IMG/VR virus record: IMGVR_UViG_3300022752_004063
Span: 1-30,786 of that record
Strand: one strand, 5' to 3'
Length of the DNA stretch: 30,786 nucleotides
Source of the DNA: a virus
The position numbers and the translations under genes were made by a program. Below, one piece after another: positions 3,085 through 24,599 of this stretch; position 1 is the stretch's first letter; every line of letters starts with the position of its first letter. Under the pieces are notes generated by a model, which was not told the DNA's origin, made no database searches, and saw only the letters and a list, made by a program, of their open reading frames with translations.

Positions 3085-3157
3085 GCGGGTGTTCTCCTGG
3101 GAGAGGACACAGCCTTCCAAGCTGTTGAAGAGGGTTCGAATCCCTTCGCCCGCTCCA
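3085..3157 (+). tRNA. tRNA-Gly(UCC)
   Basis: Acceptor GCGGGTG/CGCCCGC, anticodon stem ACAGC/GCTGT with loop CTTCCAA (anticodon TCC), T-arm GAGGG with TTCGAAT, encoded CCA. Confidence 0.92.
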
Positions 3158-3438: not shown

Positions 3439-4044
3439 ATGTTTTACTTGAAATCAAAATTTCAGTTCACAGATAATTCTAAAGAAATTATTATAAAAAT
3501 GTTTCGGGATCTTTTTAGGACACATTTTAATCATGATCTGTATTCAAAAATATCTAGCAATTTTATATATACTCAACCTGGAAAAGAATTATTAATTTAT
3601 TTTAAAAATCATAAAATTAAATTTGGTAAAATACAAGCATTTGTATCAAATAACGATAAATGGTTTAGAGGAAATCCGCATATAGATCTAACTCCCGAGG
3701 TTAATCCAATTATAATACAGAGTAGATTCAATGTATTAATTTTAGGAAACCCAAACGACAGAATGTATTGGTGGGATAAATTTTACGCTATCGAACATTT
3801 AGAACTGAAAGAGTTTACCTATCTCAATGGAATAAAATATAAATCATATGGTGTCAAAGGTGACACTATTGATGAAAGATGGAATTTTGTTGGAGAACCA
3901 ACATTTAGTGTTGCTGATATTTTATGTCCAAGTGCATTTGTTAAAACTGACTGTGTTCATACCGTTAATGTTTCTGAAGGCCCTAGATTGGTTTTAACTG
4001 TGGCCTTAAATGAAAGTATAGAAAATTTAAATTATGAGAATTGA
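3439..4044 (+). CDS. 2OG-Fe(II) oxygenase-like protein
   Basis: 201 residues. H81-I-D83 and a distal H174, followed by R183 in PRLVLTVAL, fit the HxD...H...R arrangement of 2-oxoglutarate/Fe(II) dioxygenases on a double-stranded beta-helix. The family hydroxylates peptides, nucleic acid bases or small molecules; the substrate here is unknown. The 3' end overlaps the QueC-like gene by 11 nt, so the two are likely co-translated. The first of the oxygenase island. Confidence 0.65.
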   Translation: MFYLKSKFQFTDNSKEIIIKMFRDLFRTHFNHDLYSKISSNFIYTQPGKELLIYFKNHKIKFGKIQAFVSNNDKWFRGNPHIDLTPEVNPIIIQSRFNVLILGNPNDRMYWWDKFYAIEHLELKEFTYLNGIKYKSYGVKGDTIDERWNFVGEPTFSVADILCPSAFVKTDCVHTVNVSEGPRLVLTVALNESIENLNYEN

Positions 4045-4705
4045 GTGCGGTCCATTATGGGATAGAAGATATTTAGATTTTGAGTTACCGGTTTACACGC
4101 CAATATCTAATCCTATTTTAGAAAATTTATATCGCAGAAGTCAAAAGTTAAAAAGAGATTATAGAATAGGTGTATTAGTCAGTGGTGGATTAGATAGCGC
4201 ACTTTTATATTACCTTATGCTTTTAGAAAATCAAAGAACAGGAAATAAATTTATTATCACTCCTTACACTATCTTACGTAAAGAAGGTTCAAAAAATTAC
4301 GCAATTAAGGTTATCAATCATATTCATAATCTATTCCTTTTAAACCATATAGATTTAAACATAGTCGGAGACAACCAACTTGAAGAAATACAACAAGTTG
4401 AATCAGGTGCAAAAGATGTCTTAATTGAAAATGATTTTGTCTATATTGGTATAATTGAATCTAGGCCAGAACATTCTATAAATTGGCTACGTGGAAAATT
4501 TACTGAAACTGTGCGTAGGCGTTATCCTTTGTTAAATTTACAAAAATCACACATAATAGACCTATTCTATAAATTTAACCTAGTTTCACTTATTCCCATT
4601 ACTCATAGTTGTGCTGTTAGAGAACTTGTACCTTGTCTAAATTGTAATGGTTGTAATGAAAGATCTTGGGGATTTAAAGAAATGAAAATCACAGACACAA
4701 GTTAG
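4034..4705 (+). CDS. QueC-like PP-loop ATPase (7-cyano-7-deazaguanine synthase family)
   Basis: 223 residues, near the size of E. coli QueC (231). The PP-loop SGGLDS is at 50-55; YPLLNLQKSHIIDL resembles QueC's P...K.EI block before the SC motif; and C193-x7-C201-x2-C204-x2-C207 matches its zinc site. QueC makes preQ0 from CDG, the precursor of queuosine and of 7-deazaguanine DNA modifications in some phages. FolE lies at 26429, but QueD, QueE and a DpdA-type transferase are not in the window. The stop is TAG. An adenylating enzyme for another carboxylate is the main alternative. Confidence 0.72.
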   Translation: MRIECGPLWDRRYLDFELPVYTPISNPILENLYRRSQKLKRDYRIGVLVSGGLDSALLYYLMLLENQRTGNKFIITPYTILRKEGSKNYAIKVINHIHNLFLLNHIDLNIVGDNQLEEIQQVESGAKDVLIENDFVYIGIIESRPEHSINWLRGKFTETVRRRYPLLNLQKSHIIDLFYKFNLVSLIPITHSCAVRELVPCLNCNGCNERSWGFKEMKITDTS

Positions 4706-4778
4706 TCTAATAATTCAAAATTAAAAGCAATTATGGTTTTTATACTACTTATTTCTTCGCTAATGGAATTTTGTCGTA

Positions 4779-5228
4779 TTAAGATTTAAGATCTAAAAAA
4801 CAAAAAGCATTAGATTCACTAGTCTCACTTGCTTGCCATTTAGAACCTAAGTTAAACCCTACAGATTGATAAGTAGTCCAACTGGTCTTTCTAGGGTAAC
4901 TCCATATGTGATTAGATTGTTCATATTTGCCTTGCTCAATAGTTTCCAACAATAGTTCTTTACCATAACCTTGTCCCCTGTAAATAGGATCTACCCATAA
5001 TCCACGAGATCTATATGATCCGTCAACACAAATATGCCCACTATTAACACCTATCAGTTTATTATTAAGGTAATAACCAAAAAACGTTGGCACAGATTCC
5101 ATATTTCTAACATCATGACCTTCTATATACAACATGGCACTGGTCGGTTCTATAGCACTCAATCTTCCTGGCCACAAATGGTTTTGCCAAATTTGATATA
5201 TTTTTTTCCATGAAATCTTTTTAATCAT
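4779..5228 (-). CDS. GNAT-family N-acetyltransferase
   Basis: 149 residues on the minus strand. LWVDPIYRGQGYGKELL (77-93) is GNAT motif A, with the acetyl-CoA pyrophosphate loop RGQGYG at 84-89; YQSVGFN further on fits motif B. GNATs acetylate amines on proteins, sugars, polyamines or tRNA; the substrate is not evident. It converges on the QueC-like gene with a 73-nt gap and faces the divergent tRNA promoter at 5257. Confidence 0.82.
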   Translation of the reverse strand: MIKKISWKKIYQIWQNHLWPGRLSAIEPTSAMLYIEGHDVRNMESVPTFFGYYLNNKLIGVNSGHICVDGSYRSRGLWVDPIYRGQGYGKELLLETIEQGKYEQSNHIWSYPRKTSWTTYQSVGFNLGSKWQASETSESNAFCFLDLKS

Positions 5229-5256
5229 TCTTTATTTAAATTATTAACCATCTATA

Positions 5257-5285
5257 TTGACAATTCTTTTATATAGTTGTATACT
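5257..5285 (+). promoter_or_regulatory. sigma70-like promoter before the CUA tRNA
   Basis: TTGACA (5257-5262), a 17-bp spacer and TATACT (5280-5285); the tRNA-like gene starts at 5292, almost at the expected start site. Confidence 0.8.
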
Positions 5286-5291
5286 TAATGT

Positions 5292-5387
5292 GCGATCGTG
5301 AGTGGAATTGGAAGACCTCTGCCTCTATGGCAGGATGGGGCAAAGTCTTAGACACCGCCTTTGTAGGTTCGAAGCCTACCGATCGCA
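5292..5387 (+). tRNA. tRNA-like gene with CUA (amber) anticodon and long variable arm
   Basis: Acceptor GCGATCG/CGATCGC is perfect, T-arm GTAGG-TTCGAAG-CCTAC is canonical, the discriminator is A, but CCA is not encoded. The D-region GGAATTGG is leucine-like. The best anticodon arm is TCTGC-CTCTATG-GCAGG, giving anticodon CTA, which would read UAG. The variable arm is very long (about 28 nt; GGGGC/GCCTT with an inner GTC/GAC). U37 is unusual. CTTAGAC within the variable arm resembles a Leu(UAG) anticodon loop, so a rearranged tRNA-Leu is the main alternative. Confidence 0.6.
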
Positions 5388-5393
5388 AATAGG

Positions 5394-5422
5394 TTGACAG
5401 GCATTTAGTTTTTCTGTAAAAT
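5394..5422 (+). promoter_or_regulatory. sigma70-like promoter before tRNA-Leu(UAA)
   Basis: TTGACA (5394-5399), a 17-bp spacer and TAAAAT (5417-5422); tRNA-Leu starts at 5432. The CUA tRNA just upstream has its own promoter. Confidence 0.75.
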
Positions 5423-5431
5423 CATTCAGTT

Positions 5432-5521
5432 GCGAGTGTGGTGAAATAGGTTGACACAAGAGACTTAAAATCTCTCGCTTCCGAAAGGGGCGTGCCGGTT
5501 CGAATCCGGCCACTCGCACCA
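5432..5521 (+). tRNA. tRNA-Leu(UAA)
   Basis: Acceptor GCGAGTG/CACTCGC, anticodon stem AGAGA/TCTCT with loop CTTAAAA (anticodon TAA), a normal long variable arm, T-arm GCCGG/CCGGC, encoded CCA; 90 nt. Confidence 0.95.
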
Positions 5522-5533
5522 AGTATCAAATAT

Positions 5534-5612
<79 letters not shown>

Positions 5613-5618
5613 CAAAAT

Positions 5619-6239
5619 ATGAAAATTATAGATTCTCTACACATTCCTTTTTATGAATTTAGATGCGATGAAGCATTAATTGATAGCATCGTTGAAACTT
5701 TGCCCTCGATTAAATTTAAAAAGGATTCCTCAAACAGCAACTCTGGTAATTTTTACAACAAAGAGTTGTTCTCTTGGTTTGACGAATGCTTAAAAGAGCT
5801 TTGCAAAGAATTATATAGTGATAGTATAAAGCTATCCATAACCGGATGTTGGCTCAACAGAGCATCTAGATTTGAAAAAACACAGTCTCACTGTCACATC
5901 AATTCTATTGTCAGCGGTGTGATGTATTTCTCTAATGAAAATAGCGGGAAAACTATTTTTAAGATCGATGATCCCTGGTATCATGCTCAAAACAATAAAG
6001 TCTTGCAGCTGACAAAAACACCAATTCATGAAAGATCCGTAACACTGAAGTCTGAAATTTTTCCAGAAAAGGGAAAATTAATTTTATTTCCCAGCAATAT
6101 ATACCACGAAGTAAATACACATAATGGTTCTCATTACAGGTATACACTAGCCTTCAATACATTTGTATCAGGATTGATTATGTCAAATGATGCAACAAGG
6201 CAGTTGAATCTAAATTCATTAGAAGTTCGAGCTGTATGA
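5619..6239 (+). CDS. 2OG-Fe(II) oxygenase (2OG-FeII_Oxy_5-like)
   Basis: 206 residues, seven bases after tRNA-Ile2. H91-C-H93 followed by SIVSGVMYF, then KGKLILFPSNIYHEV with H163 and R174 in RYTLAFNTF, follows the layout of the phage-rich 2OG-FeII_Oxy_5 group. It shares this layout, including CWLNR/SWLTR before the first strand, with the minus-strand gene at 13685, so the two are likely paralogues. The ATGA overlap couples it to the next gene. Confidence 0.82.
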   Translation: MKIIDSLHIPFYEFRCDEALIDSIVETLPSIKFKKDSSNSNSGNFYNKELFSWFDECLKELCKELYSDSIKLSITGCWLNRASRFEKTQSHCHINSIVSGVMYFSNENSGKTIFKIDDPWYHAQNNKVLQLTKTPIHERSVTLKSEIFPEKGKLILFPSNIYHEVNTHNGSHYRYTLAFNTFVSGLIMSNDATRQLNLNSLEVRAV

Positions 6240-6769
6240 TTACAGATAAAACAAATAAATTAAAAGTTCCGGATCGACTTCGAGAGGATTTATTAGATTT
6301 TGCTCTCACTCCTAATTTATCATACTGGGTTAAGAACCCTTACGGCCCAAATCGTAGATGTTGTTTTTTAAACCGTTTAAATTTGCCGTTAACAACCGAT
6401 GTAAAAACTTTTGCCGAGTATTGCTTCAAAGAAGTTTTTAATACTACTGTTGCTGAAGAAGTAGAATTTGGAAATTTCTTAGGATTTAATAGTGAAGGAG
6501 CATTTGTTCACAGACATCGAGATCGTCAAGGACCTAATGGTGAATATCATGTTAGGTTAAATTTTTTAATACAAAAACCAGAAGGTGGCGGCATGCCTAT
6601 TATTAATGAGTCTCCATTAATAGTCAACGAAGGACAGTGCTGGATTAACTGGGCAAGCAAAAACTATCATTCGTCTACTCCTGTAGAAGGGTGTCGACCT
6701 AGAATAGTGCTAAGTTTAGGATCTTATATAGATCTAGCTATAATAAAAAATTTTGAAAATGTATTTTAG
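6236..6769 (+). CDS. 2OG-Fe(II) oxygenase-like protein
   Basis: 177 residues, start overlapping the previous stop (ATGA). H94-R-D96 is followed by a beta-rich core with GGGMPII, a distal H145 in NYHSSTPV and R154/R156 before IVLSLG. This is the full HxD...H...R set. The substrate is unknown. The stop is TAG and overlaps the next start by 11 nt. Confidence 0.75.
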   Translation: MITDKTNKLKVPDRLREDLLDFALTPNLSYWVKNPYGPNRRCCFLNRLNLPLTTDVKTFAEYCFKEVFNTTVAEEVEFGNFLGFNSEGAFVHRHRDRQGPNGEYHVRLNFLIQKPEGGGMPIINESPLIVNEGQCWINWASKNYHSSTPVEGCRPRIVLSLGSYIDLAIIKNFENVF

Positions 6770-7262
6770 TCAAAATTTAGAATTGCTTAGGGCAATTAGC
6801 ACCAAGCGACATTTGCAATCCCATATCGCAGATCTTCCTGCAATATCTTGGGACGATGTAGTTAGCTGTATAAATGAAAATGTCTGCAACGAAAATCAAA
6901 TAACAACCCTTGAAAATTTTGGAATTGTATTATTAGATACTGGTCCTCTAATAAAATTAAGAAGTGTTTTTAGAGATTTTTGTAACCTTAATCCAAAAGT
7001 TCCTTGTTCAGCACATCTTTATATTTCTCTTTCAAGCAAGTCAAAAACTTTTGGATGGCATAAAGATACATCAGATGTTATTTTTTGGCAAGCATTAGGT
7101 CAAACTTTATTTTCAGTAAAGGAAGGAAGTAAGATCTATGAATATGAACTGTTAACCAATGATATTATTTACATTCCGGCAGGAGTGAAACATTGTACAC
7201 AACCATTGACACCGAGAGTAGGTATTTCTTTAGGTATTGATTATGCCGCTATTGCGACTTAA
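6759..7262 (+). CDS. JmjC/cupin-type Fe(II) dioxygenase-like protein
   Basis: 167 residues from ATG 6759; an in-frame TTG at 6753 is less likely. HLYISLSSKSKTFGWHKD (86-103), with H101-K-D103, then the flat strand IYIPAGVKH with H145, resembles JmjC/Cupin_4 hydroxylases, whose known members act on ribosomal proteins or histones. Its 3' end overlaps the convergent gene at 7249 by 14 nt. Confidence 0.7.
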   Translation: MYFSQNLELLRAISTKRHLQSHIADLPAISWDDVVSCINENVCNENQITTLENFGIVLLDTGPLIKLRSVFRDFCNLNPKVPCSAHLYISLSSKSKTFGWHKDTSDVIFWQALGQTLFSVKEGSKIYEYELLTNDIIYIPAGVKHCTQPLTPRVGISLGIDYAAIAT

Positions 7263-7749
7263 CTTCAAAGTTCATAGCTACTATCGATTTGATATTTGAA
7301 CCTTTGTTAGTGGGAGACTTATGTTTTATCCAACCTGGAAAAATGATAATATCACCTTCTTGAACTTTTGGTTTGATTTCAGCAGCTGACCTGTACTCTT
7401 GGAATACCGTACCGCCTGCTCCCTCTGGAAGATTTAAGTAATAGACCAATGCCCATTGGCAATAGTGTGTATGGTATGGATGGAAAGAATATCTTGCATA
7501 TTCTTGAAACCAGAAATCAAGTATTTTAATTTCTGATTTCTGAAAAATTTTTTCTAGATTCTTTAACAAGAACGGAAGTATAAATTCTTGATAGTCTTGT
7601 TTTTTCTTCAAGTGAAAATCAGATTTGGTTATTTCATCTGATATCTGGAACTCTGCATAATCAATAAAACTTTGCAACCGTGATTTTATTTCAAGGTGCT
7701 CATTCATTTTAATTATGTAGTAAGGAATCTTAAAATAATTTTCTTCCAT
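7249..7749 (-). CDS. 2OG-Fe(II) oxygenase-like protein
   Basis: 166 residues, minus strand. The first strand has H93-T-H95; AGGTVF and QEGDIIIFPGWIKHKSP supply the core and distal H143. The usual 2OG-binding Arg position looks like K154 (NIKSIVAMNF), an atypical choice that could alter co-substrate binding. It converges with the JmjC-like gene and diverges from the cupin gene at 7800, leaving only 50 nt for two leaders. Confidence 0.72.
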   Translation of the reverse strand: MEENYFKIPYYIIKMNEHLEIKSRLQSFIDYAEFQISDEITKSDFHLKKKQDYQEFILPFLLKNLEKIFQKSEIKILDFWFQEYARYSFHPYHTHYCQWALVYYLNLPEGAGGTVFQEYRSAAEIKPKVQEGDIIIFPGWIKHKSPTNKGSNIKSIVAMNFEVKSQ

Positions 7750-7759
7750 AAAGGCACTA

Positions 7760-7766
7760 ATAAATA
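7760..7766 (+). promoter_or_regulatory. possible T4-type late promoter (ATAAATA)
   Basis: ATAAATA sits about 34 nt upstream of the cupin start at 7800 and resembles the T4 late consensus TATAAATA. Such a short motif is weak evidence in AT-rich DNA, but similar AATAAATATT boxes occur at 15031 and 26360 in intergenic DNA. Confidence 0.3.
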
Positions 7767-7799
7767 TTATTTAATACATATTTTTAATGAGGAAATTTT

Positions 7800-8261
7800 A
7801 TGTCAAGACCAGATATCACAATCATGGCAGTTAGTAATGTTTATTCTAGAGTAATGCATTTTTCAAAAGCAGGAGATATCGAACTAGGGCATTATCATAC
7901 ATATGATCACGGTACCTTATTAAGTTCAGGTGTATTAAAATTAGAAATTCTAAACGATGACGGCACAGTTAAAGAAGAAAAAGTTTACACCGCTCCTAAG
8001 ATGATTTTAATCAAAAAAGAGTTTAAACATAGATTAACTGCATTGAAAGATGATACTGTAGCAGTGTGCATCCATGCTCTTAGAGATGTTGAAGGAGAAT
8101 TACTACCTGTCGATGCGCTAGAAGAGGTTACCGAATATCAACCGGAAGAAGATAAAAAAGCACTAATCGAAAGAAGAAATACTCGAAGTGTGAAAGGTAC
8201 ATTACAAAGAGAAAAAGATATTGTAATAGGAAACTTTATATCAGAAAAACCAGTGTTATGA
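7800..8261 (+). CDS. small cupin-domain protein
   Basis: 153 residues after a GAGGA Shine-Dalgarno. GHYHTYDHGTLL (30-41) with H31, H33 and H37, then KEFKHRL with H77, is the metal site of a single-domain cupin. Small cupins may be isomerases, dioxygenases or sensors. The last 45 residues or so are charged and lie outside the barrel. The ATGA overlap couples it to the oxygenase at 8258. Confidence 0.68.
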   Translation: MSRPDITIMAVSNVYSRVMHFSKAGDIELGHYHTYDHGTLLSSGVLKLEILNDDGTVKEEKVYTAPKMILIKKEFKHRLTALKDDTVAVCIHALRDVEGELLPVDALEEVTEYQPEEDKKALIERRNTRSVKGTLQREKDIVIGNFISEKPVL

Positions 8262-8854
8262 CCGATATTCAAGTTGTAGAAAATTTTTTTCCTACAATTA
8301 TTCTCAAAGAAGTAATCTCAAAGGTAGAACATTCTGAAGCTAGGTGGACTTATAAAGTTCGAAATCCAACTCATTCAGACTATTACGAAGTTTATAAGGC
8401 TCAAAAAAATGATCCAAATATTGTCGAGGATCTAAGCTATTTTCAATATAAATTTTACGGTTCTAATTCTACACTTCAAGATGAACGAATTGCTGAAATC
8501 TTTAAAACTTACATACAGAGCCAGTTTAAATTAAATGTTAGAGAAATACTAAGAATAAACTGTAACATTACATCTCCTTACCACAACTTTCAAGATCATC
8601 AATATATGATGCCGCACATTGATGCGAACATTCCACATCGATCTTTAATTTTTTATCTGCATGACTCAGACGGTGATACTGTTTTATTCGATCGATGCTA
8701 CGACGGAATAAGCGAAAATATAACAGATCTAAAGGTGGTTAAAAGAGTAAAACCAAAAAAGAATTTGTGCTTGACCTTTAATGGTTTAAGATATCATTCT
8801 GCATCACCGTCTAAGTCTATTCTAAGACGAATTATCAATGTGAATTACTTATAA
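8258..8854 (+). CDS. 2OG-Fe(II) oxygenase-like protein
   Basis: 198 residues. MMPHID supplies H120 and D122, GLRYHSASP gives H180, and R190/R191 in RRIINVNYL completes the HxD...H...R set. The insert between strands is short, as in other phage members. It ends 3 nt from the convergent minus-strand gene at 8858. Confidence 0.78.
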   Translation: MTDIQVVENFFPTIILKEVISKVEHSEARWTYKVRNPTHSDYYEVYKAQKNDPNIVEDLSYFQYKFYGSNSTLQDERIAEIFKTYIQSQFKLNVREILRINCNITSPYHNFQDHQYMMPHIDANIPHRSLIFYLHDSDGDTVLFDRCYDGISENITDLKVVKRVKPKKNLCLTFNGLRYHSASPSKSILRRIINVNYL

Positions 8855-8857
8855 CTT

Positions 8858-9481
8858 TTATTCACTTAAAAAATAATCTTTAACTGACATCCAAGAAGGA
8901 TCGGTTTTTAATTCATTGTAGGGATGCTGTTGACTTTTATATTCCCACCAGCCTGTGCTAATATATTTTATCTTCTTTCTAGGTGGATTACCCCTGTGAA
9001 TGTAATTAAAATATGCCGGCCAAATTAAAATAGTGCCTTGTGTTGGTTGTACTTCCAAATGTTGATAAAGAAACTCAGTAGTTCCGTCATCTGCATCGAG
9101 GGTATTTAGGTACAACATCCATACTAATACTCTTTTTTCTTGTTTATTATTTGTAGTATGTTCATGGTGCCAGTTATGAAAACCGCCATATAATGGAGTT
9201 TTTTGAATTTTACATTGATCGCTCACAAGCCCATATTGGTGCAAACCTCTATATTTTTTAGCATAAGTTTGTAAGCAGTCTATTAAGTTTATTTTGAATT
9301 TTTTTAGATCGGGAGTATCTGTAAATTTAAATGCTTTACTAAAATCATTTCGATCGTTTTGCTGAATTGCTGTGCCTTCAGCTTCCGAATGATCAAACAA
9401 ATAAATTAAATTTTCGCAGGTCTCTTTTGATGCTGCTTCATGAAAAATTGCTATGTCATTATTAAAGATTGGTTTGATCAT
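8858..9481 (-). CDS. 2OG-Fe(II) oxygenase, prolyl-hydroxylase-like
   Basis: 207 residues, minus strand. NWHHEH places H105-H-E107 at the first metal site (Glu in place of Asp). LVWMLYLNTLDADDGTTEF and QGTILIWPAYFNYIHRG give the core and H162; basic residues follow at 168-172. The spacing resembles prolyl 4-hydroxylase-type phage proteins. It is followed, with a 4-nt overlap, after the minus-strand gene at 9478. Confidence 0.75.
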   Translation of the reverse strand: MIKPIFNNDIAIFHEAASKETCENLIYLFDHSEAEGTAIQQNDRNDFSKAFKFTDTPDLKKFKINLIDCLQTYAKKYRGLHQYGLVSDQCKIQKTPLYGGFHNWHHEHTTNNKQEKRVLVWMLYLNTLDADDGTTEFLYQHLEVQPTQGTILIWPAYFNYIHRGNPPRKKIKYISTGWWEYKSQQHPYNELKTDPSWMSVKDYFLSE

Positions 9482-9972
9482 TTTCTTATTAAAATACTTC
9501 CAACAATTATAGTTTCTTCGTTAGCCTGTATTGGATTTATTCTAAATGCAAATGTAAAGCAAGAAGGAAAAATTATTACAGAATAATCAAGTAATGAATA
9601 CCTTCCATTACGAATAAATTCAACCGAAACTGGATGTTCTGATTCTGTTATTTTTGCTATAAATGTAAGAGTCGACGGTTGACCGTCGATTTGATCTAAG
9701 AAAACCCAATCGTTTAAAAATCCATATTTTTCAAACTCTACTATTCCTAAATAATTACAAAACGAACCTTTTTGAGAAGCTAGTAAAGGGTTAGTATATG
9801 ATTTACTAAATTTACGATATATTTTATTAGACAAATCATAATCGTTAACTGTCCAATGTTTTGTTTCGTACAGCTGATTTTTTTTGATCTGAGGCTGAAC
9901 TGATGCCTTATAAATAATCAATGGTTGACAGACTTCATAACTAAGTTTATTGTCTAAATAAAGGATATCCAT
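9478..9972 (-). CDS. 2OG-oxygenase-like protein lacking metal ligands (pseudoenzyme)
   Basis: 164 residues. The strand pattern parallels the active oxygenase at 10187: GQPSTLTFIAKI matches GIPTLSIVGIL there, and YSVIIFPSCFTFAFRINPI matches GDILVFPSIFMYRHKVLPV. The HxD site is replaced by NDWVFLDQ (no His), and the distal His position falls in FAFRI. It is therefore probably inactive, perhaps a binding or scaffold subunit. Its start lies only 2 nt from the divergent start at 9975. Confidence 0.55.
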   Translation of the reverse strand: MDILYLDNKLSYEVCQPLIIYKASVQPQIKKNQLYETKHWTVNDYDLSNKIYRKFSKSYTNPLLASQKGSFCNYLGIVEFEKYGFLNDWVFLDQIDGQPSTLTFIAKITESEHPVSVEFIRNGRYSLLDYSVIIFPSCFTFAFRINPIQANEETIIVGSILIRK

Positions 9973-9974
9973 AA

Positions 9975-10193
9975 ATGAACCATATTAGTAAAATAGCTGA
10001 AAGATTACAGGGTAAGATCAGAGCAGTTTCCGCTAGTTTAATTGTTTCTGAAGAAGTCAAATCTGAAAGGCTAAACATCTGCTTGCAATGCGAATATTTA
10101 GTGAAGCCAACCAACCAATGTACTAAATGTGGTTGCCTGATGAATTTAAAAACTAAACTCAAAGAAGTCAATTGTCCAATAGGAAAATGGTAA
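9975..10193 (+). CDS. small zinc-ribbon protein
   Basis: 72 residues. C36-x2-C39 and a second CTKCGC knuckle near 49-54, then KTKLKEVNCPIGKW at the C-terminus, form a pattern I recall from many small T4-like marine phage proteins (DUF6171-like). Zinc binding is likely; the function is unknown. Its Shine-Dalgarno (AAGGAT) lies inside the divergent gene's first codons, and its stop overlaps the start of the oxygenase at 10187. Confidence 0.7.
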   Translation: MNHISKIAERLQGKIRAVSASLIVSEEVKSERLNICLQCEYLVKPTNQCTKCGCLMNLKTKLKEVNCPIGKW

Positions 10194-10747
10194 AAACCTA
10201 CAGATCTCTCGACGATTATATCGTACTTTACAATAATTTGCTAACAGAAAAGAACTGCAATCTAGTAGTTCAAAATTCAAACTTTCAATGGAGTAAACAC
10301 GAATGGTCACATTATGACAATATCGTTGATTCCACAAATAGAGACAATGAATTTGACATTGCTTACGCTAAAGACATTGTTGTACGCTTAATTTTAAACT
10401 CTGCAATTAACAAAGCATTAGAATTTTATTCTACTGAATTCAAAGTATCATACCAAACTCACACGATTCCAAGAATAAACAAATATAATGTAGGGAATCA
10501 AATAGAAAGTCACTTTGATCATATTACATCTATTTTTGATGAGAGCAAAAAGGGTATTCCAACACTTTCAATAGTCGGAATTCTTAATTCAGAATTCGAA
10601 GGTGGCCAATTTTATTTTTGGGAAGATAAGGAAATAAAATTTTCCAAAGGAGATATTCTTGTATTTCCAAGCATTTTCATGTATCGACACAAGGTATTGC
10701 CAGTAACATCAGGCACTAGATGGAGTTTTGTCAGCTGGGCTTATTAA
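10187..10747 (+). CDS. 2OG-Fe(II) oxygenase, prolyl 4-hydroxylase/PKHD-like
   Basis: 186 residues from ATG 10187 (overlapping the previous stop as ATGGTAA); a TTG at 10172 is an alternative start. RINKYNVGNQIESHFDH holds H109-F-D111, GGQFYFW is the core, and DILVFPSIFMYRHKV gives H168 with R178 before the last strand. All catalytic positions are present, making this one of the most canonical members of the island. Confidence 0.85.
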   Translation: MVKTYRSLDDYIVLYNNLLTEKNCNLVVQNSNFQWSKHEWSHYDNIVDSTNRDNEFDIAYAKDIVVRLILNSAINKALEFYSTEFKVSYQTHTIPRINKYNVGNQIESHFDHITSIFDESKKGIPTLSIVGILNSEFEGGQFYFWEDKEIKFSKGDILVFPSIFMYRHKVLPVTSGTRWSFVSWAY

Positions 10748-10748
10748 T

Positions 10749-11657
10749 ATGAATTGGATTAAATTTAGCTGGAGCGACGGAACTGATATAACCCTTCCAT
10801 CAAAATCAGGAACCTTTATAGTTGATGCTTCAAATGTCGTAGTTTCTGATGCACCTATTATAGAAAAAGCAAAAGAAGCTATTAGCATAATAGTAAAAAA
10901 CAATCCTCCACCATACCGATTGCTTGTTAGCGGTGGGATAGATAGCCAAGCAATGATTTATGCTTGGAAAGAGTCTGGAGTAGAATTTGAAGTTCATACA
11001 TTTGTGTATGATCAAAACATGAATCTGCACGACTTATCTTTGTTATGGGAATATGCCAAATTACATGATATCAAGGTTACTCATCATAACATCAGTCATT
11101 TTGAATTTTTAAAGAATGATTTATTTTCCTATAGTAAAAAATATAGCTGTAATAGTCCTCAAATTACATTCTACATGTCTATGATGGATAGGTTTACCGA
11201 TGGAACCCTTATACTTTCCGGTAACCCTCCATTAAATATTCCCTTTTTTAACTTCGCTATTTTAGGATTAGAGAGGTATAGAATCATTAATCGTAAAAAT
11301 ATAGTTCCATTTTTTTGGATACACACTGCTGAACTTGCAGGGGCCTGGATTTATTTACAATCCAAACACGAAGCTTCATGGGTAAGATCAAATTTTAAAT
11401 TTACAGAAAATAACGAAGCAAAATGTTTTTTTTATCACAGTGCAAAAATACCCGTTATACCATCCTATAAAAAATCAGGTTTTGAAAAATATAAGCTCTA
11501 CTACGACAACTATAAGATAGATCCTGCGACCAAGATAAAGTTACTACTAAATACAAAAAAAAATAATAAGAGTAAAAGAAATTACGATATATTATTTAGA
11601 TTTTCGCTTATCTACGAAAATCCGATCTCATTAAATTTTGAAACTATAGGAATCTAA
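10749..11657 (+). CDS. PP-loop ATP pyrophosphatase, asparagine-synthetase-like
   Basis: 302 residues from ATG 10749, just after the oxygenase stop; an upstream TTG is less likely. RLLVSGGIDSQAMIYAW puts the PP-loop SGGIDS at 61-66, followed by a Rossmann-like ATPase core (FEVHTFVYD, LILSGNPPLN). No glutaminase domain and no QueC cysteine cluster are present. PP-loop enzymes adenylate a carbonyl or carboxylate, then add N or S. The substrate is unknown; it may act with a neighbouring oxygenase or the protease. Confidence 0.72.
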   Translation: MNWIKFSWSDGTDITLPSKSGTFIVDASNVVVSDAPIIEKAKEAISIIVKNNPPPYRLLVSGGIDSQAMIYAWKESGVEFEVHTFVYDQNMNLHDLSLLWEYAKLHDIKVTHHNISHFEFLKNDLFSYSKKYSCNSPQITFYMSMMDRFTDGTLILSGNPPLNIPFFNFAILGLERYRIINRKNIVPFFWIHTAELAGAWIYLQSKHEASWVRSNFKFTENNEAKCFFYHSAKIPVIPSYKKSGFEKYKLYYDNYKIDPATKIKLLLNTKKNNKSKRNYDILFRFSLIYENPISLNFETIGI

Positions 11658-11658
11658 A

Positions 11659-13698
11659 ATGACTGATTTTATTATCGATTTTGAACAAACAGCTTCGGAA
11701 GAACAAATTCAAAATTACTTTACAAGAAACGGCTGTACTGTAAAGCATGTATATAGTAACTTTGACAAGGTCTATGTTGTACAATCCGATAATGTTCTTC
11801 CTAAGGATGATATTGTTACCAGCATTATCAATGACACTGAGTCAAACATTGCTCCTCTATCAGACACTGCTATAGCAATCGATAGCTATAATGCGTCATC
11901 TTTAGCTATTCAGGACGATAAAAATTGGTGGAAAGTTGTAGTTTATGTAGGTGTTGATTTTACACAAGAAAATCTTAATTTTAAAAAGTTTGGTCAAAAG
12001 GTTACTGTTTATCTTTTAGATAGTGGTGTCGATTTAACACATCCAGAATTTGACGGAGAAGATGTTAGTCAAATTTTTACCTTCAACGGTAATCCTACAG
12101 ATGTTAATGGACACGGTACTGCTTTAGCAAGCCTCATTACTGGTAAAACTGTATCGCTAGCTTCAACAAAGGTTGTTTCTTTAAAAATATTCGAAGAAGG
12201 AACGCCTACTCCTTTAAGTAAGTTAATAGAGGCGTTTGATTTAGTTTTAACAGATTCTGTTAATCAAAAGTTTTCACTATTAAACATGAGTTGGGGTATT
12301 CCATATAACGAATACATCAATAATAAGTTAAAACAATTACACTATGCGGGTAACATAGGATTAATTGCCGCAGCCGGAAACAATGGAAGTCCTATCGCTG
12401 ATATTACTCCAGCCTGTGTTGACGAAGTATTTGTTGTAGGAGCATTTGATAAAAACTTAGATCCTTGCGATTTTACAAATTACACCAGCGATCTTGCTAA
12501 TACAGAAGGTCCTACCAATTATGGAGCCTTAGATGTATGGGCCCCGGGCGAAGATATCTATGTGGCGCTACCTAACGGTCAATATGGATCAGTTGCGGGA
12601 ACCAGCTTTGCTGCTGCAATACATTCAGCAGCAGCGGCTGCAGATGTTGATATCATGTATTCCCTAGATTCAAATAATCTAGCACCTAAAAATATTTTGT
12701 TAGATCAAGTTTTGAAAGAATCTTTTTCTAAAGGAAGGCCCGGCCTGCTAGATCTGACTGGTCAATACAGTAATTCAGTTAATGAAATTACATGTATGTA
12801 TCCACTCGATAGCACATCTCGTACATTCAGCTTACCTAACACACTTAGATTATTTGCAGATATTGATCAGTACGAACATTTTTTGCAACCACAGAATGTT
12901 AAGTCTGTGAAGTTGTTGACACCGCTTCCGCTAGGATTTAGCCTTACAGAATATGGGTGGATTGTAGGAAAACATGCTCCCCTTAATCCGGGAGTAAATT
13001 ATATTACATATCCATTAAAAGTTGAGTGGATATTAAACAACGACAGTGTGGTTAATCGCACTTATGATTTATATGTAGTGTCTTTGTCTGCTATTCCCGA
13101 AGAAATACCAGATGAGCATGTGTGGATCACACAATACGGTATTAACTGTACCAATACAACCTTTGTCTGCGGTAATCTCAGATGTCCATTTAATAATAAC
13201 AGTGCCTTAAGATATTGTTGGGATTTCGACGGAAAAGGGGGTTGTGAATACTGTTGCATCGGTGCAAACTGCTGTTTTACTCCACACACTTTAATAACCA
13301 TGGGAGATGGTTCAAAACTAGAAATTAAAAATATTAAAGTAGGTGATGTTGTCCTTGCAAAAGATCAAGCCACTGGAGATATAATTCAAAAGGTAGTTAG
13401 ATGCGTTATCACAAGAACTGAGAGACCTATGTATACATATAGGTTCTCTAACGGAGATATCTTAGAAGCATCGGAAGATCATCCTTTATTTGTTAAAGGT
13501 AAAGGTTGGGCATCGGTAGTGCCACCAGATGTATATAAAGACTTAAAGAAAGTAGAAAAAATCTTTGTTGGAGATAAAGTAGTTACTGCTGATAATTCTG
13601 AATTAGAAATTGTTTCTATTGAGCAGTTAGACTATCCAGATGTGGTCTACGAATTAGATACATCTGGATTCTTTGCTAACGGAGTTATGGCCTATTAA
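11659..13698 (+). CDS. subtilisin-family (S8) protease fused to a Hint domain
   Basis: 679 residues. The peptidase has D121 (LLDSGVD), H152 (NGHGT), oxyanion N241 (AAAGNNG) and S316 (GTSFAAA), preceded by about 110 residues that may be an inhibitor-like propeptide. No signal peptide is evident. After a beta-rich region, eight cysteines cluster at 497-538. A Hint domain follows, with C539 as first residue, DHP (H608) as block B and a terminal FFANGVMAY. The C-terminal His-Asn and extein nucleophile are missing, so splicing is unlikely and N-terminal cleavage or hedgehog-like transfer is conceivable. The gene overlaps the minus-strand oxygenase by 14 nt. Confidence 0.9.
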   Translation: MTDFIIDFEQTASEEQIQNYFTRNGCTVKHVYSNFDKVYVVQSDNVLPKDDIVTSIINDTESNIAPLSDTAIAIDSYNASSLAIQDDKNWWKVVVYVGVDFTQENLNFKKFGQKVTVYLLDSGVDLTHPEFDGEDVSQIFTFNGNPTDVNGHGTALASLITGKTVSLASTKVVSLKIFEEGTPTPLSKLIEAFDLVLTDSVNQKFSLLNMSWGIPYNEYINNKLKQLHYAGNIGLIAAAGNNGSPIADITPACVDEVFVVGAFDKNLDPCDFTNYTSDLANTEGPTNYGALDVWAPGEDIYVALPNGQYGSVAGTSFAAAIHSAAAAADVDIMYSLDSNNLAPKNILLDQVLKESFSKGRPGLLDLTGQYSNSVNEITCMYPLDSTSRTFSLPNTLRLFADIDQYEHFLQPQNVKSVKLLTPLPLGFSLTEYGWIVGKHAPLNPGVNYITYPLKVEWILNNDSVVNRTYDLYVVSLSAIPEEIPDEHVWITQYGINCTNTTFVCGNLRCPFNNNSALRYCWDFDGKGGCEYCCIGANCCFTPHTLITMGDGSKLEIKNIKVGDVVLAKDQATGDIIQKVVRCVITRTERPMYTYRFSNGDILEASEDHPLFVKGKGWASVVPPDVYKDLKKVEKIFVGDKVVTADNSELEIVSIEQLDYPDVVYELDTSGFFANGVMAY

Positions 13699-14353
13699 CA
13701 TGCTCAAGATATCTAGCCTTAATATCTTTTACGGTATATTCTAGATATGAGCTTTTAGTGGAGCTAATAACTCCAGTTGCATGTGCATTAAATATATAGG
13801 TATATCTTGTATTTTTTTGCGCTGGTAATACTCTAACTCTATGTTTTAGTCTTGACGGGTAAATTATTAATTTTCCTTTGACACTAGGAACTTTTACAAG
13901 CTCGTAATCACCATGTCCTAAAGTTTGAACATTTAGGTCAACTTCTTGTGGTAGTATCTCAAAAACTGTTTGTGAATTATTATCAGTCAAATAAAAAATT
14001 CCTGTTAAGTGACTGCATGAATGAGAATGAGTCGAAGCTGTGTAGTTAGAAGTTGATCTTGTAAGCCACGAGTCACAAATAGCAAATTGAAGTTTTCTAT
14101 TAGGAAAATAAAAATTGCCAGCTTTGGCTAGACATTCATTTAACCAATTATAAAGTGTTTCGTCGTAAGAAGGAACATTTACATCATCATCTGTAAAACC
14201 AACTTCAAACCCACTGTTAGTATCTCCTGGTCTAGCAGTTCTCCAAAATCTAACTTGTTTAACAAGGTTGTCAGTTATAGAATCTAATTCTTCTAAGTCT
14301 GGAAAATTAAATTCAACCATCTTTGATGTACTATCAAATTCAATAAAATTCAT
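13685..14353 (-). CDS. 2OG-Fe(II) oxygenase (2OG-FeII_Oxy_5-like), paralogue of 5619 gene
   Basis: 222 residues, minus strand, AGGACA Shine-Dalgarno. STHSHS with H109 and H111, LTGIFYL, KGKLIIYPSRLKHRV with H171, and R183 in RYTYIFNAHATGVISS match the gene at 5619 motif by motif. It forms a minus-strand pair with 14369 and converges on the protease gene. The duplication of this type on opposite strands suggests independent acquisition or inversion. Confidence 0.82.
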   Translation of the reverse strand: MNFIEFDSTSKMVEFNFPDLEELDSITDNLVKQVRFWRTARPGDTNSGFEVGFTDDDVNVPSYDETLYNWLNECLAKAGNFYFPNRKLQFAICDSWLTRSTSNYTASTHSHSCSHLTGIFYLTDNNSQTVFEILPQEVDLNVQTLGHGDYELVKVPSVKGKLIIYPSRLKHRVRVLPAQKNTRYTYIFNAHATGVISSTKSSYLEYTVKDIKARYLEHVNRP

Positions 14354-14368
14354 TTGTTGTCCTTTGTA

Positions 14369-14953
14369 TTATTTTGGAATGTTTAGATAAAAGTTAAATC
14401 CTAGAATTACTCTTAAAGAATCAATAGTGCTTGCATCCACTGAATGTTTATAGTTGGAATCAAAAAAGTAAGCGGTGTTTTCTGTTGCCGGCAGGAAGAA
14501 ATTATCTTCAAAAGTTATACCTGGATGTCCTTCTTCAGATTGAAGATATAGCACTCCAGAAAATTGACAATACTTTCCGTGACCATGAAGATTGGCATAG
14601 TTGCCTTTGGCATATACAGCCGCCCACATTTCGCTAACATATAATCGATAGCCGTGTTTCAATCCAACAAAATAATTTACTTTATCATTTAAAATGTCTA
14701 TCAACCCGTCTAGTAATTTTGTTTGTTTATGTAAGAAATAATCACTTTGCCAGCAAACTAATTGACCGTTATTTTGGCCTTTTTCGGTTTTATATCGTTC
14801 TGTGATATAATTTAAAATATCTTGTTTGTTATAATTGGAAGGTGGTATTATTGATCCATAAACTTTACAACGGTCTTCATGCTGTACAGTAGCAACATGC
14901 AAAGGCATCTTGTTGGGATAAAGTTTATCTAATGCCAAGGTTTCTAAGTTCAT
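14369..14953 (-). CDS. 2OG-Fe(II) oxygenase-like protein
   Basis: 194 residues, minus strand. NLHGHG with H123 and H125, FSGVLYL, GITFEDN and YFFDSNYKHSV with H170, then R181 before VILGFNF, give the double-stranded beta-helix metal and 2OG sites. It is the first gene of the minus-strand pair; an ATAAATA box on that strand lies 7 nt before its start. Confidence 0.8.
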   Translation of the reverse strand: MNLETLALDKLYPNKMPLHVATVQHEDRCKVYGSIIPPSNYNKQDILNYITERYKTEKGQNNGQLVCWQSDYFLHKQTKLLDGLIDILNDKVNYFVGLKHGYRLYVSEMWAAVYAKGNYANLHGHGKYCQFSGVLYLQSEEGHPGITFEDNFFLPATENTAYFFDSNYKHSVDASTIDSLRVILGFNFYLNIPK

Positions 14954-15343: not shown

Positions 15344-15748
15344 ATGTATCAAGATGATTTAACCCTAACACATAAACTAGATTTAGAAAATGGATTTGTT
15401 GACGCAAGAGGCAAAATTTTACCAATTGTACATGACATTGCTAACGTGCAAATGATTTGGTCTGAAACTGGTGCTATTCGTGCAAACCATTATCATAAGA
15501 CTGATACACATATTTGCTATCTAGTCTCGGGAGATATGGACTATTACTGGCGCAATCACGGAGAAACTAAGATTCATAAAGAACGTATTGTTGCTGGAGA
15601 ACTGTTTAAAACAGGTCCCTTAATCGACCATGAGATGGTATTCACTAGTCCATCTGTTATGGTAGTTGTTAGTGAGCACAAACGTGATGCACTAAGTTAC
15701 GATCAAGACATCGTTAAAATTGATCCATTACACGAACAATATGTTTAA
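15344..15748 (+). CDS. cupin-domain protein of the tailoring operon
   Basis: 134 residues, AGAGG Shine-Dalgarno. NHYHKTDTH provides H49, H51 and H56, LVSGDMDYY is the cupin turn and LIDHEMVF supplies H96. The pattern resembles small sugar-related cupins (FdtA/WxcM or epimerase-like) rather than the oxygenases. Its stop overlaps the next start, placing it as the first gene of the sugar-like operon, so a role on a nucleotide sugar is plausible but unproven. Confidence 0.7.
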   Translation: MYQDDLTLTHKLDLENGFVDARGKILPIVHDIANVQMIWSETGAIRANHYHKTDTHICYLVSGDMDYYWRNHGETKIHKERIVAGELFKTGPLIDHEMVFTSPSVMVVVSEHKRDALSYDQDIVKIDPLHEQYV

Positions 15749-16883: not shown

Positions 16884-16912
16884 TATATGGGACGGGGAAA
16901 TGGGCTAGATTA

Positions 16913-17593: not shown

Positions 17594-17594
17594 A

Positions 17595-18593: not shown

Positions 18594-18602
18594 GGATTAA
18601 TA

Positions 18603-19850
18603 ATGCCTAAACTAGCAATTATAGGTAAAGGCACAGCCGGTGCATTATCTATAGGACATTTTTTAAGATACACAGATTGGGAAATAGATTGGTATTTTGA
18701 TCATTCCGTGAAGGCTCAGGCCGTAGGTGAGGCATCTACTCTTACTCTTCCTAACGCACTTTACCAATATTTTGATATTACTATTGAAGAATTACAAAAA
18801 CACCTAGACGGTAACTACAAATATGGAATTAGAAAGAAGAATTGGGGTACAGGCAAAGATTTCTTTCATCATTTTTCTCCACAAGGAAACGTAGCCTATC
18901 ATTTTAACGCAGTAAAACTACAAGAATACGTATTTGATTTTGTTCAGAAGAGTAGGCGTGTAAAAATATTTGATCAACATGTTCATAGTCTAGATTCCAT
19001 AGATGCTGATTACATAATGAATTGTAGTGGTAAACCTAAAGATTTCGAACCTTTTCATATGTCCGAATATATTCCAGTTAACAGTGTTTATGTAACTCAG
19101 TGCTATTGGGATCATCCTACCTTTCAATATTCTTTAACCTATGCTAGAAAATACGGATGGGTTTTTGGTATTCCTCTACAGAATAGGTGTTCAATAGGCT
19201 ATCTTTATAACAACACAATTACCAGTTTGGAAGATGTTAAAGAAGATGTTAAAATAATGTTTGAAGACTTTAACCTTGTTCCAAGCGAAGACACTAATGC
19301 TTTTAGTTTTAATAACTATTATAGAAAAAACAATTTTGAGCAGGACGAAAGAGTTGTCTACAACGGTAATGCCAGTTTCTTTCTAGAACCATTAGAAGCA
19401 ACAAGCATACACTTTATGGAACATATTTTTAGATTAGCATGGGATTTATGGAATGGACGTAGATCTGTAGCAGAATGTAATCAAGGTTATATAAGGTATA
19501 TCACAGCAATAGAACATATGATAGCCAATCATTATTATGCAGGCAGTATTTGGGATAACCAATTTTGGACGATGGCCAAAGAAAAAGGTAAAAATGCTAT
19601 GAATAAATATTCCGAAAATGCTGCATATCAAAATATTTTAGATTGCATGAAAAAGAATAAGAAACAATGTTTAAAAATGCTTATAACTGAATTACCTGCT
19701 GAGTACGGGCAATGGAATGCTCCACAGTTTTATCAAAATTACGAAGGTTTAGGTATTCTTGATAAAGTATTGAATGAGTTTTACATACATCAAATTAGTC
19801 CAATGAGAAACGACATGCTATCAGCATTGAGAGGAAATTACAGTGTCTAA
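18603..19850 (+). CDS. flavin-dependent halogenase (tryptophan-halogenase family)
   Basis: 415 residues. GKGTAGA (8-14) binds FAD, and GEAST (42-46) matches the GEAT block. NYKYGIRKKNW puts K73 at the catalytic Lys position of FDHs (K79 of PrnA/RebH). WVFGIP (186-191) corresponds to the WxWxIP signature, with Phe at the second Trp. A flavin reductase partner is not seen. FDHs oxidise halide to hypohalous acid, which the Lys channels to the substrate. A halogenase from cyanophage Syn10 (VirX1) is known, so the family is established in marine phages; the substrate here is unknown. Confidence 0.9.
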   Translation: MPKLAIIGKGTAGALSIGHFLRYTDWEIDWYFDHSVKAQAVGEASTLTLPNALYQYFDITIEELQKHLDGNYKYGIRKKNWGTGKDFFHHFSPQGNVAYHFNAVKLQEYVFDFVQKSRRVKIFDQHVHSLDSIDADYIMNCSGKPKDFEPFHMSEYIPVNSVYVTQCYWDHPTFQYSLTYARKYGWVFGIPLQNRCSIGYLYNNTITSLEDVKEDVKIMFEDFNLVPSEDTNAFSFNNYYRKNNFEQDERVVYNGNASFFLEPLEATSIHFMEHIFRLAWDLWNGRRSVAECNQGYIRYITAIEHMIANHYYAGSIWDNQFWTMAKEKGKNAMNKYSENAAYQNILDCMKKNKKQCLKMLITELPAEYGQWNAPQFYQNYEGLGILDKVLNEFYIHQISPMRNDMLSALRGNYSV

Positions 19851-19980
19851 GTCAAAAGATAAACAAGAACGTAAGGTAGTATCTAAAAGAACGAGTCAAG
19901 GAGGCAAGTTGCCTAAAACAAGTTCTATGAGCAAACACCAACGCAGGAATTTTAAATCTTATAGGGGACAGGGGAAATAA
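19843..19980 (+). CDS. small basic conserved protein
   Basis: 45 residues from GTG 19843, overlapping the end of the halogenase gene. It is rich in Lys, Arg and Ser, with a C-terminal SKHQRRNFKSYRGQGK pattern that I recall from T4-like marine phage proteins. No domain is recognisable; nucleic-acid or ribosome binding is a guess from charge. It ends 2 nt before the next start. Confidence 0.7.
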   Translation: MSKSKDKQERKVVSKRTSQGGKLPKTSSMSKHQRRNFKSYRGQGK

Positions 19981-19982
19981 TT

Positions 19983-20162: not shown

Positions 20163-20226
20163 TTAAATGGTATAACGGTTGATTTGTAATCATCAATTGG
20201 CAGTTCGATTCTGTCAGGGGGCACCA
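20153..20226 (+). tRNA. tRNA-Thr(UGU), copy 2
   Basis: Acceptor GCCTCCT/AGGGGGC, loop TTTGTAA (anticodon TGT), T-loop TTCGATT, encoded CCA. It is very similar to the copy at 350 but has a better anticodon stem (four of five pairs). Its first 10 nt are the 3' end of the preceding CDS. Confidence 0.85.
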
Positions 20227-20231
20227 AAACA

Positions 20232-20669: not shown

Positions 20670-20680
20670 GTATATAACTT

Positions 20681-21174: not shown

Positions 21175-21175
21175 G

Positions 21176-24059: not shown

Positions 24060-24599
24060 ATGGATCTAACGCTGATTATTGTTGACAACTTTTACTTGAA
24101 TCCGGATGCTGTAAGAAATTATGCCTTAAGTTTGCCATTTGATGTAAAAGGTAATTTTCCAGGCATAAGAACCAAACCTTATCTACCAGATGATGTAAAA
24201 AATTGTATACGGCATTGGATGAGCCCTGTTGGTAAAATTACGAACTGGCATGAAAATTACGGATACACAGGTGCGTTTCAAATGGCTACAGCACTTGATA
24301 GAACTTGGATTCATTCTGATCATTTTAATAAATGGGGAGGCGTTTGCTACCTAACACCAGATGCTCCTATCTCCGCAGGTACTGCACTGTACCAACATAA
24401 AGAAACAAAACTATACAGGAGAATTGAAAAAGATTATGAAGGCTACGATTATACAAAATGGGATCTTGTAGACCGAATTGGCAATAGATATAATCGTTTG
24501 ATACTTTTTAGAGGAGACCTGTTTCATGCAAGTCTTGATTATTTTGGAGACAGTTATACAAATGGTAGACTGTTTCAAACCTTTTTCTTTGATATATAA
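24060..24599 (+). CDS. DUF6445-like 2OG-Fe(II) oxygenase-like protein
   Basis: 179 residues. TWIHSDHF gives H85-S-D87, GGVCYLTPDAP is the core strand, NRLILFRGDLFHASL gives H156, and R170 precedes FQTFFFD. The first block (VDNFYLNPDAVRNYALSL) is typical of a phage-rich oxygenase group. Embedded between glycosyltransferase-like genes with 0-1 nt gaps, it may hydroxylate the acceptor they modify. Confidence 0.72.
   Translation: MDLTLIIVDNFYLNPDAVRNYALSLPFDVKGNFPGIRTKPYLPDDVKNCIRHWMSPVGKITNWHENYGYTGAFQMATALDRTWIHSDHFNKWGGVCYLTPDAPISAGTALYQHKETKLYRRIEKDYEGYDYTKWDLVDRIGNRYNRLILFRGDLFHASLDYFGDSYTNGRLFQTFFFDI

What the first reader, a model, noticed from the sequence alone, without database searches (positions are those of the whole stretch)
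3439..14953. Eleven double-stranded beta-helix oxygenase-like genes in 11.5 kb
The genes at 3439, 5619, 6236, 6759, 7249, 8258, 8858, 9478, 10187, 13685 and 14369 form the densest group of this type I would expect in a phage; a twelfth is at 24060. They are diverse in sequence and strand, arguing for accumulation of different substrates rather than simple tandem duplication. They share the island with two PP-loop ATPases, a GNAT and a subtilisin-Hint protein. This could be a modification system for peptides, virion proteins or modified bases.
Basis: partly seen in the sequence, partly recalled or inferred. Interest (0 to 1): 0.68.

Follow-up and report, generated by a model that had tools for sequence, protein, structure and literature searches.

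The report
Phage oxygenase island in tRNA array
A large tailed phage carries ten probable iron-dependent oxygenase genes and one related gene that has lost its active site, packed between tRNA genes; ten genes of this island (five of those oxygenases, the dead one and four partners) recur in nearly the same order in a second, diverged phage, so they probably work together, most likely to chemically modify a phage-made protein.

Summary
All eleven ORFs are where stated: eight match known double-stranded beta-helix (DSBH) families, two (3439, 6236) keep invariant HxD..H..R residues, and one (9478) is a DSBH relative that lost two of three metal ligands. Two cupins were missed. Dense 2OG-oxygenase groups are already known in aquatic phages: S-SSM7 has seven in about 12 kb, S-SCSM1 has 24 per genome, and a 345-kb phage contig has seven in 6.4 kb. 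The island is extreme, not unique. New here: a ten-gene core (3439, QueC-like 4034, 8258, 7249, 8858, dead 9478, zinc-ribbon 9975, 10187, PP-loop 10746, subtilase-Hint 11659) recurs between tRNA genes in a second phage, eight genes at only 35-57% identity, nearly in order, under purifying selection; the closest sister contigs lack it. I infer a cassette for oxidative modification of proteins, perhaps virion adhesins: similar clusters elsewhere sit beside tail-fibre genes, and a PF13759 member folds like prolyl hydroxylases. Substrate and cofactor use are untested.

The parts
3085..3157 (+). tRNA-Gly(tcc) that precedes the cassette; the same tRNA precedes it in L174
3439..4044 (+). DSBH gene (by motif), new family, H81xD83..H174..R183; core cassette; found beside a 4034-like gene in three phage lineages
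4034..4705 (+). QueC-family PP-loop protein (SGGxDS, C(x)7CxxCxxC), not canonical QueC; core cassette
4779..5228 (-). GNAT acetyltransferase; absent from the second cassette copy
5291..5612 (+). three tRNA predictions (His, Leu-taa, Met-cat); the Leu-Met pair lies near the conserved 15344 block in sister contigs L162/L163
5619..6239 (+). PF13759 DSBH, HxH91-93..H163..R174; model fold like prolyl hydroxylases
6236..6769 (+). DSBH-like by motif, H94xD96..H145..R156 invariant in 4 relatives
6759..7262 (+). JmjC_2-type DSBH, H101xD103..H145
7249..7749 (-). PF13759 DSBH, HxH93-95..H143..K154; core cassette (53% identical copy in L166/L174)
8258..8854 (+). phrog_274/PF13640-like DSBH, H120xD..H180..R190; core cassette (35% identical copy)
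8858..9481 (-). P4H-like DSBH (phrog_61), H105xE..H162..K172; core cassette (57%)
9478..9972 (-). catalytically dead DSBH relative, overlapping the start of 8858; core cassette (44%)
9975..10193 (+). small zinc-ribbon-like protein (DUF6171/phrog_13558); core cassette (49%); next to an oxygenase in two cultured cyanophages
10187..10747 (+). P4H-like DSBH (PF13640/phrog_61), H109xD..H168..R178; core cassette (52%)
10746..11657 (+). second PP-loop protein (SGGIDS), no zinc motif; core cassette (46%)
11659..13698 (+). subtilase (S8) with C-terminal Hint domain; core cassette (53%)
13685..14353 (-). PF13759 DSBH, HxH109-111..H171..R183; not shown to be core
14369..14953 (-). PF13759-type DSBH, HxH123-125..H170..R181; not shown to be core
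15344..15748 (+). cupin, start of the block shared with sister contigs L162/L163 (90%)
18603..19850 (+). flavin-dependent (tryptophan) halogenase; relatives lie beside oxygenases in several phages
24060..24599 (+). DUF6445/phrog_1644 DSBH-like gene, H85xD..H156..R170, conserved in sister contigs

Best explanation
The island is an accessory region in the tRNA array of a large tailed phage. Its core is a co-conserved ten-gene cassette: five DSBH oxygenases, one dead DSBH partner, a zinc-ribbon protein, two PP-loop ATP-using enzymes and a subtilase-Hint protease. It most likely modifies a ribosomally made phage protein. The DSBH enzymes would use Fe(II), O2 and 2-oxoglutarate to hydroxylate side chains, the PP-loop enzymes would activate and join or amidate carboxyl groups, and the subtilase would cut the product or a partner free. 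The likeliest substrate is an exposed virion adhesin, because similar oxygenase clusters in related phages lie beside tail-fibre genes. Shown: gene content, active-site motifs, fold class of one family, conservation of the cassette under purifying selection, clusters next to fibre genes elsewhere. Inferred: cofactor use, protein substrate, adhesin identity, order of steps.
For: Ten genes (3439, 4034, 8258, 7249, 8858, 9478, 9975, 10187, 10746, 11659) recur on the same strands and, apart from 8258, in the same order in L166/L174, flanked by tRNA-Gly(tcc) and tRNA-Leu(tag), at saturated synonymous divergence with pN 0.28-0.43 for eight genes and dN/dS about 0.2 for the 3439-4034 pair. Invariant metal motifs. 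The model of 5619 (pTM 0.72) matches PF13759 structures 3bvc/2rg4 first, then P. putida P4H, PHD2 and viral collagen P4H, which are protein hydroxylases; the P4H-like profile hits prolyl and lysyl hydroxylases. Clusters soon after tail-fibre genes in S-SSM7, S-CAM9 and ACG-2014h, after tail collar/short-fibre genes in L131 and around collar-like genes in L112, after a fibronectin-type fibre-like gene in L140. In 74 loci (seed loci removed) 51-53 of about 100 oxygenase genes lie within three genes of a fibre gene against 39-41 after rotation, about 2% of rotations reaching this.
Against: The window itself holds no fibre or other structural gene, so the adhesin link rests on other phages. The fibre enrichment is modest, and rotation does not control for everything. 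Only one further cassette copy was found. Genes lie on both strands in about five short units, not one operon. P-SSM2 has a cluster among replication genes, so fibre linkage is not universal. No 2OG binding, activity or substrate was tested.
Confidence: 0.4

Rival explanations
1. Tailoring of a surface glycan or small molecule rather than a protein: the oxygenases, together with the halogenase (18603), C-methyltransferase (15741), NDP-sugar epimerase (17595) and glycosyltransferases, decorate a phage-encoded sugar or host surface glycan.
For: Sugar-modifying genes lie downstream. Halogenase relatives sit next to or near oxygenases in L139-L141, L142, L144, L108/L118, L159, L176 and P-TIM40. 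Carbamoyltransferases lie beside oxygenases in L142, L159 and S-SSM5. Oxygenases adjoin nucleotide-sugar and glycosyltransferase genes in S-SSM7.
Against: The conserved ten-gene core contains no sugar or halogenase gene, and the sister contigs keep most of the sugar block without the oxygenase island, so the two blocks are separable. Halogenase and cassette are not conserved together.
Confidence: 0.25
2. An accessory hotspot with no common purpose: tRNA arrays collect small genes, and each oxygenase serves its own task such as host metabolism, 2OG drawdown or DNA repair, as proposed for cyanophages.
For: tRNA arrays in four relatives (L143/L157, L158, L168, L174) carry different oxygenase sets, and sister contigs carry fatty-acid desaturases at this position instead. 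The genes form several short units on both strands. Sullivan 2010 (PMC3037559) proposes roles in 2OG and nitrogen balance.
Against: Ten genes of different families kept together and nearly in order at saturated synonymous divergence is not expected of unrelated cargo. It may still be true of the non-core genes 5619, 6236, 6759, 7800, 13685 and 14369.
Confidence: 0.2
3. Modification of tRNA or DNA: the oxygenases and the QueC-like protein modify the phage tRNAs around them or make hypermodified bases.
For: The island lies in a tRNA array here and in L158, L168 and L174. 4034 is QueC-family, FolE is at 26429, and a JmjC_2-type protein is present.
Against: 4034 and its relatives lack the YxQxHxxE, VPxRN and YPDC motifs of canonical QueC. 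Oxygenase clusters in L112, L118, L140 and L160 have no tRNAs near them. No QueD or QueE was seen in the window.
Confidence: 0.1

Closest known systems
Multi-copy 2OG-Fe(II) oxygenases of T4-like cyanophages (S-SCSM1 with 24 genes, PMC9602691; S-CREM1 with 10, PMC9964418; S-SSM7)
   Same: Same families (PF13640, PF13759), low mutual identity, local clusters, halogenase in the same genomes.
   Different: No psbA or fibre genes in the window; island lies in a tRNA array; a conserved core with PP-loop proteins, subtilase-Hint and a dead DSBH is not described in the passages read.
Oxygenase-ferrochelatase partner genes of HTVC023P-type pelagiphages (PMC9599517)
   Same: Several non-orthologous oxygenases close together near tail genes.
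   Different: Partner there is a ferrochelatase-like gene; here PP-loop proteins, zinc ribbon and subtilase-Hint.
QueC-family protein-modifying enzymes Cap9 and QatC (type IV CBASS, qatABCD)
   Same: QueC-family protein in a multi-gene cassette; SGGxDS and a cysteine cluster.
   Different: 4034 lacks the canonical and Cap9 substrate motifs; no CD-NTase, QatA, QatB, QatD or Cap10 recognised near it.
Bacterial and viral prolyl 4-hydroxylases (P. putida P4H, PBCV-1 collagen P4H, PHD2)
   Same: Fold of 5619 and sequence profile of 8858/10187 match.
   Different: PF13759 members have HxH instead of HxD; substrates here unknown.

Membership tests
Fe(II)/2OG oxygenase, HxD/E..H type (8258, 8858, 10187, 6236, 3439, 24060) | 2-His-1-carboxylate facial triad HxD/E..H | tested here: met
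   Positions; invariant in relatives
Fe(II)/2OG oxygenase, HxD/E..H type (8258, 8858, 10187, 6236, 3439, 24060) | basic residue after the distal His for 2OG binding | tested here: met
   R or K 9-14 residues after the distal His, invariant R in the 3439 and 6236 families
Fe(II)/2OG oxygenase, HxD/E..H type (8258, 8858, 10187, 6236, 3439, 24060) | 2OG- and O2-dependent turnover | not testable with these tools
   needs purified protein
Fe(II)/2OG oxygenase: gene 9478 | facial triad | tested here: not met
   QxD and Phe in place of the distal His in both copies
PF13759 2OG-FeII_Oxy_5 (5619, 7249, 13685, 14369) | score over the Pfam cut-off | tested here: met
   57.6, 32.7, 38.0 bits against 27; 14369 at 26.8 is just below, with phrog_81 E 2.5e-23
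PF13759 2OG-FeII_Oxy_5 (5619, 7249, 13685, 14369) | carboxylate in the metal triad, as in classical 2OG oxygenases | tested here: not met
   HxH..H invariant in 22 and 15 aligned members; so 2OG use by this family remains open
JmjC_2 / ribosomal-oxygenase-like (6759) | PF08007 score over cut-off and HxD..H | tested here: met
   25.9 bits against 22; H101xD103..H145; only the end of the profile is matched
Canonical QueC (4034) | SGGxDS phosphate loop | tested here: met
   SGGLDS, conserved in relatives
Canonical QueC (4034) | C(x)8CxxCxxC, YxQxHxxE, VPxRN and YPDC motifs (PMC13329287) | tested here: not met
   C(x)7CxxCxxC; the other three motifs absent
Flavin-dependent tryptophan halogenase (18603) | PF04820 over cut-off and FAD motif GxGxxG | tested here: met
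   95.9 bits against 21; GKGTAG at the N-terminus
Flavin-dependent tryptophan halogenase (18603) | WxWxIP motif (known from the family, from memory) | tested here: not met
   WVFGIP, second Trp is Phe; so halogenase activity is likely but unproven

The most novel reading that the evidence does not exclude
A new phage protein-maturation system: a ten-gene mobile cassette in which an inactive DSBH subunit (9478) pairs with an active P4H-like hydroxylase (8858), and works with further oxygenases, two PP-loop enzymes and a subtilase-Hint protein to build a densely modified protein or peptide.
Probability: 0.25. Interest if true: 0.75.

Novelty: new variant of a known kind. Interest (0 to 1): 0.5.

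Why it matters
Marine and freshwater phages carry up to two dozen 2OG-oxygenase genes, and PMC9602691 states that their viral functions have not been specifically investigated. A small conserved cassette with defined partners turns that open question into a testable one: ten genes, one protease, two ATP-using enzymes and a dead subunit can be expressed together and searched for a modified substrate. If proteins are the target, it would be an unusually rich oxidative modification system in phages.

Tried and rejected
Nearest-DNA search of the island in cultured phages gave nothing, or only tRNA matches. tblastn with 3439 and 9478 found nothing in cultured phages; single-protein scans with 11659, 8858 and 9478 found no relatives in virus contigs. 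The structure of 9478 without an alignment was useless (pLDDT 32). Profile comparison of 3439 and 6236 with other DSBH profiles gave no signal, so they rest on motifs. A precursor peptide (RiPP) was looked for by reading the gaps between genes: only short spacers are left uncovered in 5619-14953. The small fibre-region protein phrog_7759 as a possible substrate: adjacent to oxygenases in L077, L119, L139-L141, DSL-LC04, S-SSM5 and HTVC023P, but with no detected oxygenase nearby in Greip, HTVC025P, Bellamy, CRP-143 and zth2-2, and absent from the window; rejected as a general explanation. Chance clustering rejected because and the conserved core. A further copy of the cassette in virus or bacterial genome collections was not found with the subtilase profile.
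Full report
What was claimed and what is there. The window is a 30,786-base linear virus record with 20 predicted tRNA genes and no recognised structural gene. All eleven listed ORFs exist. Eight fall into known DSBH families by Pfam or PHROGs: 5619, 7249, 13685 and 14369 in PF13759/phrog_81; 8858 and 10187 in PF13640/phrog_61; 8258 in phrog_274; 6759 in JmjC_2/phrog_4992. The 3439 family (eight members) and the 6236 family (four members) have invariant HxD..H..R residues, which is motif evidence only, since profile comparison with other DSBH alignments gave no signal. 9478 has no HxD..H; its two-sequence profile matches the P4H-like alignment at 95.8% probability over 148 columns, with the first His replaced by Gln and the distal His by Phe. 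It is therefore a DSBH relative that has lost its metal site. Two cupin-like genes (7800, 15344) were overlooked, and the twelfth gene at 24060 is a DUF6445 protein with HxD..H..R.

How unusual the density is. Profiles seeded with the window proteins count 12 genes in 11.5 kb here and at most 7 in 80 virus loci centred on a relative of 8858, but this favours the window because some profiles were built from it alone. With the three shared PHROG families, the window has 7 in 9.3 kb; S-SSM7 has 7 in about 12 kb, ACG-2014h 6 in 8.7 kb, P-SSM2 6 in 7.8 kb, S-H35 5 in 3.4 kb. A 345-kb contig, found through the halogenase, has 7 in 6.4 kb within a stretch of 27 tRNA genes (L158). S-SCSM1 is reported with 24 such genes (PMC9602691). 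Dense groups are thus a known feature of aquatic phages.

A conserved core. Scans with 22282 and 3439 brought close relatives. Contig L174 (the whole of L166's record, 11.5 kb) holds 3439, 4034, 8258, 7249, 8858, 9478, 9975, 10187, 10746 and 11659 on the same strands, preceded by tRNA-Gly(tcc) and followed by tRNA-Leu(tag), with 16 more tRNAs upstream. Only 8258 has changed place. 3439 and 4034 are about 86% identical with dN/dS near 0.2; the others are 35-57% identical with synonymous sites near saturation and pN 0.28-0.43. The GNAT, the second tRNA group, 5619, 6236, 6759 and 7800 are missing there. The 3439-4034 pair also occurs in L167 and in L171-L173, the latter with radical SAM genes. 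Sister contigs L162/L163 match most of the window from 15344 to 30415 in order but carry fatty-acid desaturases and other genes, not the island, upstream of 15344. The island is therefore an accessory block in a tRNA region, with a core kept together by selection.

What the enzymes look like. PF13759 members have HxH..H instead of HxD..H, invariant in two alignments; whether this family uses 2OG is open. The AlphaFold model of 5619 (pLDDT 75, pTM 0.72) is closest to two unannotated PF13759 structures and then to protein hydroxylases: P. putida prolyl 4-hydroxylase, PHD2 and the viral collagen hydroxylase. The P4H-like profile hits prolyl and lysyl hydroxylases in the PDB by sequence. 4034 is in the QueC family but lacks three motifs of canonical QueC and has C(x)7 in place of C(x)8 in its cysteine cluster; QueC-family enzymes are now known to modify proteins in Cap9 and QatC systems (PMC13279940, PMC13329287), which is a lead, not a test.

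Where such clusters lie elsewhere. In S-SSM7, S-CAM9 and ACG-2014h the cluster starts soon after a tail-fibre gene and is interrupted or followed by a helicase gene. In L131 it follows collar and short-fibre genes, in L112 collar-like genes lie inside it, in L140 a halogenase and four oxygenases follow a fibronectin-type fibre-like gene. A rotation test on 74 loci gave 51-53 oxygenase genes near a fibre gene against 39-41 expected, reached in about 2% of rotations: modest support. P-SSM2 is an exception, with its cluster among replication genes. Halogenase genes adjoin or lie near oxygenases in L139-L141, L142, L144, L108/L118, L159, L176 and P-TIM40, and carbamoyltransferases do so in L142, L159 and S-SSM5.

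Reading. The best-supported account is a cassette for oxidative modification of a protein, with a virion adhesin as the likeliest target (0.4). Glycan or small-molecule tailoring (0.25), unrelated cargo in a hotspot (0.2) and nucleic-acid modification (0.1) remain possible. Shown: sequence, motifs, fold class, conservation, neighbourhoods. Inferred: cofactor, substrate and order of steps.

Noticed in passing
window 18603-19850; L139-L141, L142, L144, L159, L176, P-TIM40 (L138): Flavin-dependent halogenase genes repeatedly adjoin DSBH oxygenase genes in diverse phage contigs; L159 has four halogenase-like genes, two PF13759-type genes and a carbamoyltransferase in 10 kb.
   Followed up: partly
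L158 6040-12476 (345-kb contig): Seven DSBH genes placed singly or in pairs between tRNA genes; 27 tRNAs in 17 kb.
   Followed up: partly
L163 810-4288; L164 427-1197: Fatty-acid desaturase genes occupy the island position in the sister phages, another kind of oxygen-dependent enzyme.
   Followed up: no
L140 9548-9964 and 13454-13843; L077, L119, L154: A small Trp/Pro-rich protein of the fibre region (phrog_7759) often lies directly beside oxygenase genes; possible substrate or partner.
   Followed up: partly
L172 4766-12358: Several radical SAM-like genes next to two 3439-family genes and a 4034-like gene.
   Followed up: no
window 29720-30415: Bax inhibitor-1 family membrane protein, conserved together with the MazG-like 29340 in sister contigs L162, L163 and L164.
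   Followed up: no
L168 1554-1985: Predicted permuted tmRNA gene in a phage contig with 32 tRNA genes.
   Followed up: no
L112 8625-9983: 453-aa fusion of a 'ferrochelatase' PHROG domain with a P4H-like oxygenase; the PHROG name may be wrong, since the N-terminal part itself shows an HxD motif (HTDRP).
   Followed up: no
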